A stretch of DNA of 34,797 nt from Flavobacteriales bacterium (GTDB taxonomy: Bacteria; Bacteroidota; Bacteroidia; Flavobacteriales; UBA1820), in NCBI GenBank assembly GCA_017620815.1, contig JAGAUI010000007.1, positions 1 through 34,797 on the forward strand, given 5' to 3'. This document shows, one piece after another, positions 1 through 34,797 of this stretch. A model generated the notes under the pieces. The model was not told the origin of the DNA. It worked only from the letters and a program-made list of their open reading frames with translations, and did not search any database. Numbering within the stretch: the first letter of the stretch is position 1; each line of letters begins with the position of its first letter. Position numbers and translations under genes: made by a program.

Positions 1-166
1 ATTTAAAACTAAAAAGCCACCTCTTGGCGGCTTGTGGGAGCAGAGGGACTTCATTCGCCCCAGGTGGCTTGAAAAGCAAAACTATTTAAAACTAAAAAGC
101 CGCCTCTTGGCGGCTTGTGGGAGCAGAGGGACTTCACTCGCCCCAGGTGGCTTGAAAAGCAAAACC
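1..166. repeat. 83-bp tandem repeat carrying a tRNA 3'-end fragment and a hairpin
   Basis: Two complete 83-bp units, 1-83 and 84-166, differ at only a few positions; the first 20 bases of a third unit start at 167 and run into the tRNA-Val terminator. Read on the minus strand, each unit contains about 15 bases identical to the 3' end of the adjacent tRNA-Val (acceptor strand and part of the T stem; plus positions 36-48 and 119-131) and then a GC-rich hairpin followed by a T-run like a terminator. So each unit looks like a copied and decayed tRNA tail plus terminator. The array touches the window edge, so the copy number is unknown. Remnants of integration at the tRNA are one explanation, slippage duplication another. 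Confidence 0.85.
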
Positions 167-5260: not shown

Positions 5261-7852
5261 ATGGATTTTAGCAACTTTACAACCAAAAGCCAACTCTCTA
5301 TCCAGAGTGCCCAGCGTCTGGCATCTGAAAGAGAAAACCCGTATATAGAAAACGCACATATCCTAGAAGGCATATATGAGCAGGACGACAATGTCATATC
5401 CTTTCTACTAGGCAAAAGCGGAGTGAATGCAGAAGACATTCGCCGTCAGGTGGATACCATTATGAAGTCTTATCCCAAAGCATCTGGTGCTAGTATAACC
5501 TTTTCTCGTGATGCGTCTAGAATGCTTTCCTATGCACAAGAGATAGCCCGCTCCATGAAAGACTCTTATGTCACCATAGAACACATAATCATAGCCATGA
5601 GCCGTGGGAATGATGAGATTTCACGTCTTTTCCATCAGAACGGCATCACAGAAAAAGACTTGAAAGTCGCCATAGAGCAGTTGCGTAAAGGACAGAAAGC
5701 AAACAGTCCATCACAGGAAGACACCTACCAATCCCTAGAAAAATACGCCAATAACCTCAACCAAATGGCTCGAGAGAATCGTCTGGACCCAGTCATAGGT
5801 CGTGATAGCGAGATACGGCGTGTCCTTCAAATCCTCTCCCGCCGCACCAAGAACAACCCTATCCTCATAGGCGAGCCCGGTGTAGGTAAAACAGCCGTTG
5901 CCGAAGGTCTTGCACACCGTATAGTAAAGGGTGATGTCCCACAGAATCTGCTTGATAAGACTATCTATTCGCTGGATATGGGAGCATTGGTAGCTGGAGC
6001 CAAATACAAAGGCGAATTTGAAGAACGACTCAAAAGCGTGGTAAAGGAAGTTAGTTCGTCTGATGGAGACATCATACTGTTTATAGACGAGATACACACA
6101 CTGGTAGGAGCAGGAGGTGGAGAAGGTGCTATGGACGCTGCCAATATCTTAAAACCAGCCCTTGCACGAGGAGAATTGCGTTCCATAGGTGCCACTACCC
6201 TTAACGAATACCAGAAGTATTTTGAAAAGGACAAAGCTCTGGAACGTCGTTTTCAGAAAGTGATGATAGAAGAGCCAGATTTTGATTCTACTGTATCCAT
6301 ATTGCGTGGTATCAAGGAAAAATACGAGACACACCACCACATACGTATCAAGGATGACGCTATCATTAGTGCAGTAGAACTATCTACACGCTATATCACA
6401 GACCGTTTTCTCCCAGACAAGGCGATAGACCTTATAGACGAAGCCGCATCCAGATTACGTATGGAGATGAACTCCCGTCCCGAAGAACTAGATGAACTAG
6501 ACCGCCGTATCATGCAGCTAGAGATAGAACAGGCCGCCATACGCCGTGAGAAGGATGAAGTCAAACTTTCTGCCATAGCAGCCGAACTTGCCAATCTTAA
6601 AGAATCCCGTTCACAGGTAGAGGCACGTTGGCTTACAGAAAAAAATATAGTAGATGACATTCAGAAGACCTTATCACACATAGAAGACCTCAAGTTCCAG
6701 TCATCGGAAGCAGAACGCAATGCAGACTATGCACGTGTAGCCGAGATACGTTACAGCCTGCTCAAAGAAGCCCAAGACCACATAAATGAACTCAATACCC
6801 GCCTCAAGGAAATGCAAGCAAACGGTACAGCTCTTATAAAAGAAGAGGTAGATAGCGAGGATATAGCCGAAATAGTCTCCAAATGGACAGGCATACCTGT
6901 ACGGAAAATGATGGCATCAGACCGCGAAAAACTCCTTCATCTAGAAGAAGAGCTACACCACCGTGTAGTAGGACAAGACAGAGCCATTACCGCCATAGCC
7001 GATGCCGTACGTCGTTCACGAGCTGGACTTCAAGACCCACGAAAACCCATAGGCAGTTTTATGTTTCTGGGTACAACCGGTGTAGGTAAGACAGAACTAG
7101 CACGAGCCTTAGCAGAATTTTTATTTAATGACGAGAAGGCCATGGTACGTATAGATATGTCTGAATATCAGGAGAAACATTCTGTAAGCCGACTAGTAGG
7201 AGCCCCTCCGGGATACATAGGTTATGATGAAGGAGGACAACTCACCGAGGCTGTACGCCGTCATCCATACAGCGTAGTGCTTTTTGACGAGATAGAAAAA
7301 GCACACCCAGACACCTTCAACATCCTACTTCAAGTCCTAGATGATGGCCGTCTTACCGACAACAAAGGTCGTACCGTTGACTTTAAGAACACTATCATCA
7401 TCATGACCTCAAATATAGGTTCACACCTTATAATGGACGCTCTGCAGGGAGAAGAAAACCCCAGCAATGAACTGCTAGATAAGACCAAAGAAAAAGTATT
7501 TGAGTTGCTTAAGATGAGTATCCGTCCAGAATTTCTCAATCGTATAGACGAGATAATAATGTTCTCTCCTCTATCCCGTGAGGATATCAAGGAGGTAGTA
7601 AGACTGCAAATAAAATCACTTTCTTCTATGCTCTCCAAGCGTGATATAAGCCTCACAATAGATGAAAACGCCATAGAGATACTATCTAGCGAAGGTTATG
7701 ACCCACAGTATGGTGCCCGTCCTATAAAACGTGTCATCCAACGCGACCTTATGAATTCTCTTTCCCGCTCTATTATTTCGGGAGAGATAGAACCTGCCTC
7801 ACAGATAACGGTAAGCGGTGATAATGGCAAATTGGTCTTTAAGAACTCATAA
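5261..7852 (+). CDS. clpB: ATP-dependent disaggregase ClpB
   Basis: ClpB is a cytoplasmic AAA+ hexamer that works with DnaK to pull apart aggregated proteins after stress. The 863-residue length is standard. The Clp N domain covers about residues 1-145. The first AAA+ module has Walker A GEPGVGKT at 204-211 and Walker [11 protein letters not shown] near 272-281. The long coiled-coil middle domain (about 400-530), which separates ClpB from ClpA/ClpC, is intact. The second AAA+ module has GTTGVGKT at 604-611 and LFDEIEKAH, and the sequence ends in the ClpB D2-small domain with [11 protein letters not shown]. It is a single-gene unit, divergent from glyA and closed by a terminator. Confidence 0.96.
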
Positions 7853-25807: not shown

Positions 25808-26605
25808 TTACTCATAATATAGGTGCGTACGCTTCACTTCCTGAACCCTATTCTGCATAAAGATAGTTTCACGACGCGTCCAGTTACCTTTTTCATCTTT
25901 GTCATAATAAAGAAACTCCTGAGATGAAGAGTTCTTAAGGAGCATATCTTTGGTTTCTATTTTTGTTATATTGTTTTGATTGTCATAGTCATAGAGAGTC
26001 TCTATATCAGAACTTTTACCATTAGGGTCATAAGCCATCATACTTATATGGCGACCTTTGGCATCGTTTTTATAAACTATCTCACCCATTTTATTTCCTT
26101 CAGCATCTTTGTTTATTTCCTTAATTACATTACCGTTTTTGTCATACTCAAAAAAAGTAGAACCATCCACCTTTTTACTTTCTGCATTTACAGAGGAAAT
26201 AGATGTAAGTCGTCCCGATGCCGAATAACGATGTATAAACGTACGCACCAATTTGTCATCAACATACATTTCAATCATCGTGAGATTGCCGTCTTTATCA
26301 TATAGATACTTCTCATAAAGTTTAGCATTGCTACTTGTAGAACGCAATTCTGTAAGATACCCACCTTCATTAAATTCATACACACGCACTATATCATATT
26401 CACCAATGCCTGTAGTATCTCTATCCTTTGCTATAAAAGACCTTTCGTTATCGGGCATATTGCGTACACATTCTTTCACTTGTTTTACACTCCCTTTAAG
26501 ACCATGATTTTCCCAATCTGTCTTTTTGACCCCTGCTCCACCACATGAAACAAACATCACCCCAAATAATAGCACCAGTGCTAATCCAATTTTTTTCATC
26601 ATCAT
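25808..26605 (-). CDS. YD-repeat-like lipoprotein, function unknown
   Basis: The 265-residue protein has a lipoprotein signal (MFVSC, Cys21) and is therefore envelope-anchored. The body consists of beta-hairpin units resembling RHS/YD repeats, for example YLYDKDGNLTMIE, FFEYDKNGNVIKEIN and LYDYDNQNNITKIE. These repeats form extended or shell-like beta structures. No enzyme motif is visible. It sits inside a housekeeping operon, 17 bases after holA and 30 before glmM. It lacks the core and toxin domains of RHS proteins. Confidence 0.85.
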   Translation of the reverse strand: MMMKKIGLALVLLFGVMFVSCGGAGVKKTDWENHGLKGSVKQVKECVRNMPDNERSFIAKDRDTTGIGEYDIVRVYEFNEGGYLTELRSTSSNAKLYEKYLYDKDGNLTMIEMYVDDKLVRTFIHRYSASGRLTSISSVNAESKKVDGSTFFEYDKNGNVIKEINKDAEGNKMGEIVYKNDAKGRHISMMAYDPNGKSSDIETLYDYDNQNNITKIETKDMLLKNSSSQEFLYYDKDEKGNWTRRETIFMQNRVQEVKRTHLYYE

Positions 26606-33185: not shown

Positions 33186-33269
33186 TCGTAATTTATTTGC
33201 CAATCTAAAAATTAAAACAAATATGAGTAGCAAAATATAAGGTATTTATCTGGGATACAGACCAAAGGA

Positions 33270-33830
33270 ATGTACGCCCGACGTGAAGACAAAGAAAAAG
33301 CATTATCCTATGCAGAAAAAGCTGCTATTGCAAAAAAAGAAGAAGAAAAACAGATAAAAGAAATAGAAAGACAACTGAGAAGTCAATATTCTGGCAATAG
33401 AACAACATTGCAAAGATTAAGTTTTAAAACAACATATTTACATTATAAATTTGGAGGAGGAAGACCTTTATATGTTGATATAACTGGAGAGTATATTCCA
33501 ACAATATCTGCAAAAAAACATTTTAACAACGAAATAGGGAAAGAAGCCGATGTCAACACATTTGATTTCCGTCACTTAAGCAATATAGGAGTAACTATAG
33601 GTTCTGCAAGATGGAAATATTTAGGGAATAATACAGTAGAAGTTGTAGGGAATGGCACTTACGATTTTAACCTAGACGATTTTAAGATAAATCAACGAAA
33701 CATCGGAACTATTATAGGAAGTATACTTCACAACAGCCCATTAAATATTGTACCTTTTGCCAGTGTACTCACTTATGGAGGAAGACCATTTAAAATATAC
33801 ATTAAAGGAAAAGCTAAAATAAATCCATAA
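33270..33830 (+). CDS. orphan RHS-type toxin C-terminal tip-like protein
   Basis: The 186-residue protein has no signal peptide or membrane helix. Residues about 1-42 are charged coiled coil; about 43-60 contain GNRTTLQRLSFKTTYLHYKF, and about 110-185 contain a TYDFNLDDF segment, RNIGTIIGSI and YGGRPFKIYIKG. In layout it recalls the variable C-terminal tips of Bacteroidetes RHS-repeat proteins. This is memory-based, and I know no enzymatic role. Upstream in frame there is only a short open stretch (from 33228), with no RHS core, so the gene looks 5'-truncated or displaced. Codon use is foreign: 7 of 12 Leu are TTA and 7 of 11 Arg are AGA, unlike neighbours. The next gene starts one base after its stop. 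Confidence 0.7.
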   Translation: MYARREDKEKALSYAEKAAIAKKEEEKQIKEIERQLRSQYSGNRTTLQRLSFKTTYLHYKFGGGRPLYVDITGEYIPTISAKKHFNNEIGKEADVNTFDFRHLSNIGVTIGSARWKYLGNNTVEVVGNGTYDFNLDDFKINQRNIGTIIGSILHNSPLNIVPFASVLTYGGRPFKIYIKGKAKINP

Positions 33831-33831
33831 A

Positions 33832-34305
33832 ATGAAAAAAATTTTTAAAATATCTGCAATTATAGCCATACCTATTCTATGCGTAGTCATATTTACAACA
33901 CTACTCGTAAGCAGTGCTATTTTAAGAAATATGAGCACTCATATAGTGGGACAATACAGCATATCTTGTGACAATTTTCTTGAAAAATGCTATAACGATC
34001 AGAGCAAGACTGGCATAGCATATGACGATGGTGTTTACATAAAAAAATACACTTATAATGAGCAATTCATACTCTTGGACACTTGGAAAAGGAAAGACAA
34101 CTGTATACATTATGAAAACCCTTGGTTTATAGCAAAGACAGAAGGCCGCATAGAGATGCTTAAATGTTATTATCCTGCTCTATACATCATAGACGTTAAA
34201 CAGGATTCTATCTATGGCCCTATGGATATAAAAGAATATGTAGAGATGAGAGAAAAACTTGGCGTACCAGATGATATGACTCTCAAAGTAAAACTTAAAA
34301 TATAA
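33832..34305 (+). CDS. small membrane-anchored protein, putative immunity protein 1
   Basis: The 157-residue protein has one N-terminal membrane helix (about 5-30) with basic flanks, so the rest probably lies outside the cytoplasm. The body reads like a small single-domain protein, with an acidic/aromatic middle and a C-terminal tail YIIDVKQDSIYGPMDIKEYV then LGVPDDM. Tails of this form occur in small Bacteroidetes proteins found beside polymorphic toxins. It starts one base after the toxin-tip gene, suggesting translational coupling. Its last 44 residues are the same as in the next gene, while the rest is only distantly alike. Function is inferred from context only. Confidence 0.7.
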   Translation: MKKIFKISAIIAIPILCVVIFTTLLVSSAILRNMSTHIVGQYSISCDNFLEKCYNDQSKTGIAYDDGVYIKKYTYNEQFILLDTWKRKDNCIHYENPWFIAKTEGRIEMLKCYYPALYIIDVKQDSIYGPMDIKEYVEMREKLGVPDDMTLKVKLKI

Positions 34306-34306
34306 A
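34177..34306 (+). repeat. 130-bp exact direct repeat, copy 1
   Basis: These bases, covering the 3' end and stop codon of the first membrane-anchored gene, are identical to 34668-34797, at a distance of 491 bp. Upstream of the repeat the two genes are clearly diverged. Confidence 0.95.
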
Positions 34307-34325
34307 ACCCATAGCACATAATCAT

Positions 34326-34796
34326 ATGACAGAACTTAAAAGAGCCCTTATCATTATCCCATTATCGATAATCATTATCCCTCTCCTGATATTGTTAGCA
34401 CAAGGATTATATATGTGGAGCGACAGCCCAGAAGAAATAGCAGGGAGATATCTTATATGCTATGAGCCTCACTTTACACTGGGGATAAAAACAGGAGAAA
34501 GCACTTGGAATCTGTATGATGAGAATATGTTTATAGAGAACATAGAACATTCAGACGACTTTATACTCATCTATGCCCTCCGCTCCCCAAACGACATATT
34601 ACAAAGCGAGGATTGGATAATAAGCAAATGGAATGATGTGGAAAAAATTAAAAATGATTTTTCCCCCGCTCTATACATCATAGACGTTAAACAGGATTCT
34701 ATCTATGGCCCTATGGATATAAAAGAATATGTAGAGATGAGAGAAAAACTTGGCGTACCAGATGATATGACTCTCAAAGTAAAACTTAAAATATAA
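34326..34796 (+). CDS. small membrane-anchored protein, putative immunity protein 2
   Basis: The 156-residue paralogue of the preceding gene starts 20 bases after it. It has an N-terminal membrane helix (about 7-29, Ile/Leu-rich), a diverged middle (IAGRYLICYEP and FILIYALR align with GQYSISC and FILLDTW of the first), and the identical C-terminal tail ending LKVKLKI. The stop codon is at 34794-34796, one base before the window ends, so the gene is complete but its downstream context is unseen. Probable orphan immunity or decoy gene in an array; function is inferred from context only. Confidence 0.7.
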   Translation: MTELKRALIIIPLSIIIIPLLILLAQGLYMWSDSPEEIAGRYLICYEPHFTLGIKTGESTWNLYDENMFIENIEHSDDFILIYALRSPNDILQSEDWIISKWNDVEKIKNDFSPALYIIDVKQDSIYGPMDIKEYVEMREKLGVPDDMTLKVKLKI

Positions 34797-34797
34797 A
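34668..34797 (+). repeat. 130-bp exact direct repeat, copy 2
   Basis: Identical to 34177-34306 and cut by the window end, so it may extend further. Exactness at synonymous sites implies recent duplication or gene conversion. Confidence 0.95.

What the first reader, a model, noticed from the sequence alone, without database searches (positions are those of the whole stretch)
34177..34797. Two paralogous membrane-anchored genes share an exact 130-bp 3' end but differ elsewhere
The two genes diverge through their first 110 residues, yet their last 44 codons and stop are identical base for base, including synonymous sites. This fits a cassette array in which a constant 3' tail serves as recombination homology while variable N-terminal and middle parts are exchanged. 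That arrangement would let the cell collect different immunity proteins behind one landing site.
Basis: partly seen in the sequence, partly recalled or inferred. Interest (0 to 1): 0.8.

Follow-up and report, generated by a model that had tools for sequence, protein, structure and literature searches.

The report
Paired immunity-like genes sharing recombined tails
Two neighbouring genes in an uncultured gut bacterium, probably shields against a cell-wall toxin, differ in their front parts but have an identical back end kept alike by recombination, a known way for bacteria to reshuffle such shields, seen here in a new lineage.

Summary
Confirmed: genes A (33832-34305) and B (34326-34796) share an exact 130-bp 3' end (34177-34306 = 34668-34797): 42 identical codons, TAA and 1 nt. 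Upstream, the proteins are 18% identical. The window is a whole contig of a 1.73-Mb draft genome in the genus of Candidatus Merdimorpha (Flavobacteriales). It ends at the repeat because the assembly broke there: contig C30 begins with the same 137 bp, and sibling species G002 carries B followed directly by C30's genes. No third copy follows.

The tail is recombined. In G002 a different gene precedes B, sharing only the last 88 bp, with a sharp edge. One tail site is C in both G000 copies and A in both G002 copies. B itself looks exchanged between species (dS 0.21 against 0.65-1.80 nearby).

Function, inferred: gene X before A carries a domain found at the C-terminus of Rhs toxins, and distant A/B relatives directly follow such toxins. 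The domain weakly resembles colicin M. A and B are probably membrane-anchored immunity proteins beside a frameshifted toxin remnant. This matches known tipC/esaG immunity-paralogue recombination. A 'landing-site cassette array' is overstated: two copies, no recombinase gene among the neighbours.

The parts
33270..33830 (+). Gene X, 186-aa ORF; homology to G001 X begins further upstream (ATG at 33223) but a 1-bp frameshift separates that start from the frame. Its C-terminal 130 residues are a polymorphic-toxin domain also found at the C-terminus of Rhs proteins.
33832..34305 (+). Gene A, 157 aa: one N-terminal hydrophobic helix plus a soluble domain; candidate immunity protein, starts 1 nt after X's stop
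34177..34306 (+). Constant 130-bp 3' tail, copy 1 (42 codons, TAA, 1 nt)
34307..34325 (.). A-B spacer, nearly identical in G002 between A' and B'
34326..34796 (+). Gene B, 156 aa, same architecture; 97% identical protein in G002 with unusually low dS
34668..34797 (+). Constant 130-bp 3' tail, copy 2; end of contig C19, overlapping the first 137 bp of contig C30
32490..33137 (+). Rhomboid-family gene, upstream flank of X-A-B; in G001 it is followed by a terminator and the phosphoribosyltransferase gene without X, A or B

Best explanation
X-A-B is a small toxin/immunity remnant. X is a frameshifted gene for a toxin domain otherwise found at the C-terminus of Rhs proteins, possibly a diverged colicin-M-like domain acting on lipid II in the periplasm. 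A and B are tandem immunity paralogues, each held by one N-terminal helix with its domain in the periplasm. Their front and middle parts have diverged, presumably to fit different toxin variants, while the C-terminal part is a conserved structural core. Homologous recombination between the tails (gene conversion or crossover) keeps them identical and lets variable parts or whole genes be swapped, also between species. Shown here: identical tails, one concerted site, sharp tract edges, low dS of gene B, sequence links of X to Rhs toxin domains and of A/B to the genes behind them. Inferred: immunity function, periplasmic topology, lipid II as target, and any adaptive value of the exchange.
For: 130-bp identity with saturated divergence upstream. 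G002: the gene before B differs, tail shared over 88 bp at 87/88 with a sharp edge (27 of the preceding 42 bases differ); site 87 is C/C in G000 and A/A in G002. Gene B dS 0.21 against 0.65-1.80 in 43 equal-sized windows of the three downstream genes; DNA identity falls right after B's stop. X-type domain matches Rhs C-termini, hhalign 98.0%, E 2.1e-13; Rhs core confirmed by NCBIfam. Distant A/B relatives directly behind such Rhs genes in G439, G005 and G705, profile match 93.9%, E 1.6e-7. X and an A/B-type gene are adjacent also in G001 and G003. Toxin profile's five best PDB hits are colicin M, E 0.0023-0.0032, over its catalytic domain.
Against: The concerted-evolution evidence rests on one site and two genomes. 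Low dS of B could reflect one ordinary transfer event. The colicin M link is unstable: other versions of the profile put unrelated proteins first or find nothing, Pfam Colicin_M does not match, and the catalytic His is not conserved. Some toxins of the family have a different downstream lipoprotein. No function was tested; the genus has no Rhs core protein detected.
Confidence: 0.62

Rival explanations
1. A single recent conversion or unequal crossover copied B's 3' end onto A (or the reverse) in G000, with no continuing exchange and no role in acquiring immunity; the similar tails in G002 stem from the common ancestor or from one transfer.
For: One event suffices for the 130-bp identity in G000; only one site shows a within-genome pattern.
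Against: G002 has its own near-identical tail pair with a different edge and a different upstream gene, so at least two events are needed, and B's low dS adds a third.
Confidence: 0.25
2. A and B are not immunity proteins but small envelope proteins of unknown role that happen to be duplicated.
For: No curated family with a function matches; the model of B has no fold match in PDB at E <= 0.001; the toxin gene next to them is broken.
Against: Co-occurrence with the same toxin domain in the genus and, independently, behind Rhs genes of other genera.
Confidence: 0.2
3. The shared tail is an assembly artefact.
For: The contig ends exactly at the repeat and the genome is a draft.
Against: Independently assembled G002 shows two near-identical tails at the same place; in C19 copy 1 is bridged by unique sequence on both sides.
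Confidence: 0.03

Closest known systems
TipC immunity paralogues (streptococcal T7SS, against TelC lipid II phosphatase) and EsaG paralogues of S. aureus (PMC9484751)
   Same: Tandem immunity paralogues with variable parts and shared nucleotide blocks (one near the 3' end) that recombine; TipC is membrane-bound and protects against a lipid II-cleaving toxin.
   Different: Unrelated proteins and phylum; up to 15 (tipC) or 12 (esaG) copies there, two here; no 5' block here; toxin beside it is broken.
Colicin M and its immunity protein Cmi (PMC8469651, PMC5821083)
   Same: Toxin-domain profile aligns to colicin M's catalytic domain with D-x-Y-D in register; Cmi is likewise a small periplasmic protein with one N-terminal anchor.
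   Different: Similarity is weak, the motif's His is missing, X itself lacks the first Asp, and A/B share no detected similarity with Cmi.
DUF3997 (PF13162), family of unknown function
   Same: C-terminal part of A, B and the Rhs-linked relatives matches the end of the model; the G142 relative exceeds the cut-off.
   Different: A and B stay below the cut-off; no paper in the library names the family.
Orphan immunity arrays of gut Bacteroidales (rAID, PMC12247911)
   Same: Immunity-like genes without an intact toxin in a gut bacterium.
   Different: No recombinase seen, two genes only, different protein families.

Membership tests
Recombining tandem immunity paralogues (esaG/tipC kind) | Tandem paralogues with a variable part and a block of very high nucleotide identity | tested here: met
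   130-bp identical tail, 18% aa identity elsewhere
Recombining tandem immunity paralogues (esaG/tipC kind) | Recombination between copies seen across genomes | tested here: met
   Different tract edges and a shared within-genome base in G000 and G002; thin: one site, two genomes
Recombining tandem immunity paralogues (esaG/tipC kind) | Genes neutralise a cognate toxin | not testable with these tools
   Only association: X next to A/B, relatives behind Rhs toxins
Rhs polymorphic toxin C-terminal domain (X) | Homology to variable C-terminal domain of Rhs proteins | tested here: met
   hhalign 98.0%, E 2.1e-13; hosts carry Rhs core
Rhs polymorphic toxin C-terminal domain (X) | Fused to an Rhs/YD core | tested here: not met
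   X stands alone; no Rhs core detected in the four genus genomes
Colicin M family (toxin X) | Match to the Colicin_M model | tested here: not met
   PF14859 finds nothing at these loci even at E 10
Colicin M family (toxin X) | Active-site motif DxYDx5HR | tested here: inconclusive
   D-x-Y-D present in most relatives and in register with colicin M; the HR part is not; X reads G-x-Y-D
DUF3997 (A, B) | Score above Pfam cut-off | tested here: not met
   16 and 18.5 bits against 25
rAID orphan immunity array | Associated recombinase and array of orphan immunity genes | tested here: not met
   No recombinase family in window ORFs of 150 aa or more or the first genes of C30; two genes only

The most novel reading that the evidence does not exclude
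The 3' tail works as a modular exchange point: divergent immunity genes for an undescribed Rhs-borne, colicin-M-like toxin family are swapped between species by crossovers in the flanking tails, each gene being replaced as a unit bounded by the tail of the preceding gene and its own.
Probability: 0.25. Interest if true: 0.55.

Novelty: new member of a known kind. Interest (0 to 1): 0.36.

Why it matters
If true, it extends recombination between immunity paralogues, described for Gram-positive type VII systems, to a small-genome gut Flavobacteriales lineage, and it points to an unannotated Rhs toxin domain with a DUF3997-like partner, giving a testable function to a family of unknown role.

Tried and rejected
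Assembly duplicate: rejected by G002. Phage or plasmid origin: no match of B in the phage or plasmid collections and no exact tail match in viral contigs. Further copies of the tail: none in G000 beyond the contig overlap; an A/B-like pseudogene on C30:6012-6302 has a different end. A hit at G001:C102 was a chance match in an unrelated gene. Hits in G045 and G092 fall in what I read as a heme-biosynthesis gene and were dropped. Fold search of B gave nothing at E <= 0.001; X modelled alone was unusable, pLDDT 37. Defence-system library: nothing. The shorter lipoproteins behind some Rhs toxins of this family do not match A/B, so not every such toxin has an A/B-type partner. The colicin M link was tried with five alignments and is only suggestive. 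What lies before A' in G002 could not be read: its contig ends there and the upstream region is missing from that genome.

Full report
Observation. The window is the complete contig C19 of a 42-contig, 1.73-Mb genome. Its last two genes, A (33832-34305, 157 aa) and B (34326-34796, 156 aa), share their final 130 bases exactly: 34177-34306 equals 34668-34797. Upstream of the tail the proteins align with 18% identity over 114 codons and synonymous sites are saturated. Protein conservation cannot explain the identical synonymous sites of the tail.

Why the window ends there. Contig C30 of the same genome starts with the same sequence; the exact overlap with the end of C19 is 137 bp. After the tail C30 has a strong terminator-like hairpin (-38.6 kcal/mol, z -10), then a phosphoribosyltransferase gene on the other strand, a glycine-transporter-family gene and an M42 peptidase gene. 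Sibling species G002 (contig JAFYKQ010000057.1, water buffalo cecum MAG) has B, 97% identical in protein, followed by this same gene order. So C19 and C30 are most likely neighbours, B is the last copy, and the break is the assembler's failure at the repeat. The other genus members held are G001 (JAQUTH010000001.1) and G003, Candidatus Merdimorpha stercoravium.

Recombination. G002 has another gene, A', in front of B. Only its last 62 codons are on the contig; they differ from A, yet its final 88 bp match the B' tail at 87 positions, whereas 27 of the 42 positions before differ. The edge is abrupt and lies elsewhere than in G000, where identity covers 130 bp. At position 87 of the tail both G000 copies have C and both G002 copies have A: copies resemble their genome-mate more than their counterpart in the other species, as gene conversion predicts. 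It is one site, so the support is real but thin. Gene B itself is too similar between the species: dS 0.21 over its first 112 codons, against 0.65 to 1.80 in 43 equal-sized windows from the three genes downstream; DNA identity falls from 96-100% to 88, 84 and 77% in the 100-base windows after B's stop. The simplest reading is that a stretch from the tail of the preceding gene to the tail of B was exchanged between the species by homologous recombination. This is inference.

Site history. In G001 the rhomboid gene is followed directly by a terminator-like hairpin and the phosphoribosyltransferase gene: no X, A or B. G001 instead has X- and A/B-like remnants, X frameshifted and the A/B-like gene lacking its N-terminus, between GAPDH and an S46 peptidase gene. 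G000 keeps an A/B-like pseudogene at that same place (C30:6012-6302). In G003 the end of X is followed directly by an A/B-like gene. X and A/B thus occur as a pair and are gained, moved and lost.

What the genes are. A and B have one N-terminal hydrophobic helix and a beta-rich domain (model of B: mean pLDDT 73.7, tail region 86-93 apart from the last residues). Pfam's only relevant hit is DUF3997, below its cut-off. A profile search over 396 genomes of the phylum found few distant relatives. In G439 and G005 the relative lies directly behind an Rhs protein gene, and the C-terminal domain of these Rhs proteins is homologous to X: X-type sequences alone against Rhs C-termini alone give 98.0% probability, E 2.1e-13. 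A search with the toxin domain found more in the order, among them open frames of 2,202-2,338 codons; those I read are each followed by a gene for a lipoprotein-like protein. Four hosts score above the curated cut-off for the Rhs core. The partners in G439, G005 and G705 match A/B at 93.9%, E 1.6e-7; those in G594, G604 and G562 do not. The toxin domain matches no Pfam or NCBIfam toxin model.

Likely mechanism. One toxin profile placed colicin M as its five best hits in the PDB (E 0.0023-0.0032), aligned over colicin M residues 136-266, with the family's D-x-Y-D on the catalytic D226-x-Y228-D229 (residues per PMC8469651). This is a lead, not proof: related profiles gave colicin M or pectocin M2 at E 0.13-0.2 below unrelated proteins, X-type sequences alone none, Pfam Colicin_M none, and the motif's His is missing; degenerate versions of the motif are known (PMC5821083). 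[quoted passage not shown] X is frameshifted near its start in G000 and in the middle in G001, so A and B would now be orphan immunity genes.

Comparison. Recombination between tandem immunity paralogues through conserved nucleotide blocks is documented for esaG and tipC; tipC protects against a lipid II phosphatase, is membrane-bound and has blocks near both gene ends (PMC9484751). The present case works like that on present evidence, with a different family, phylum and copy number. I file it as a new member of a known kind; immunity function itself is untested.

Observation right; immunity guess plausible and now supported by association; recombination at the tail supported; array and landing site not shown. 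The rest of the window is housekeeping genes with no recombinase recognised.

Noticed in passing
window 1-166: Tandem pair of an 83-bp unit (96% identical) at the other end of the contig, next to tRNA-Val (206-281, minus); the assembly probably broke in this repeat too. No Rfam family beyond the tRNA.
   Followed up: partly
L004 (C30) 6012-6302, minus strand: A/B-like pseudogene (internal stop, middle part missing) between the S46 peptidase and GAPDH genes, where G001 has X and A/B remnants.
   Followed up: yes
L042 73-597 (minus strand): In G439 the A/B-like gene is followed by a second toxin-like gene with a Pfam ribonuclease (barnase-type) domain, E 6e-13.
   Followed up: no
L051, L052, L053: The same toxin family has a different, shorter lipoprotein as downstream partner in another genus, so the domain seems to pair with more than one immunity type, as reported for ColM bacteriocins.
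   Followed up: partly
L054 and L057 (G721 contig C28): Two Rhs-type toxin loci of this family on one contig, each with its own lipoprotein gene behind it and a further Rhs C-terminal fragment downstream: a toxin-module array.
   Followed up: no
window 25808-26605, minus strand: 265-aa lipoprotein-like gene with RHS repeats (Pfam PF05593, E 2.8e-9) in a genome with no Rhs core protein detected.
   Followed up: no
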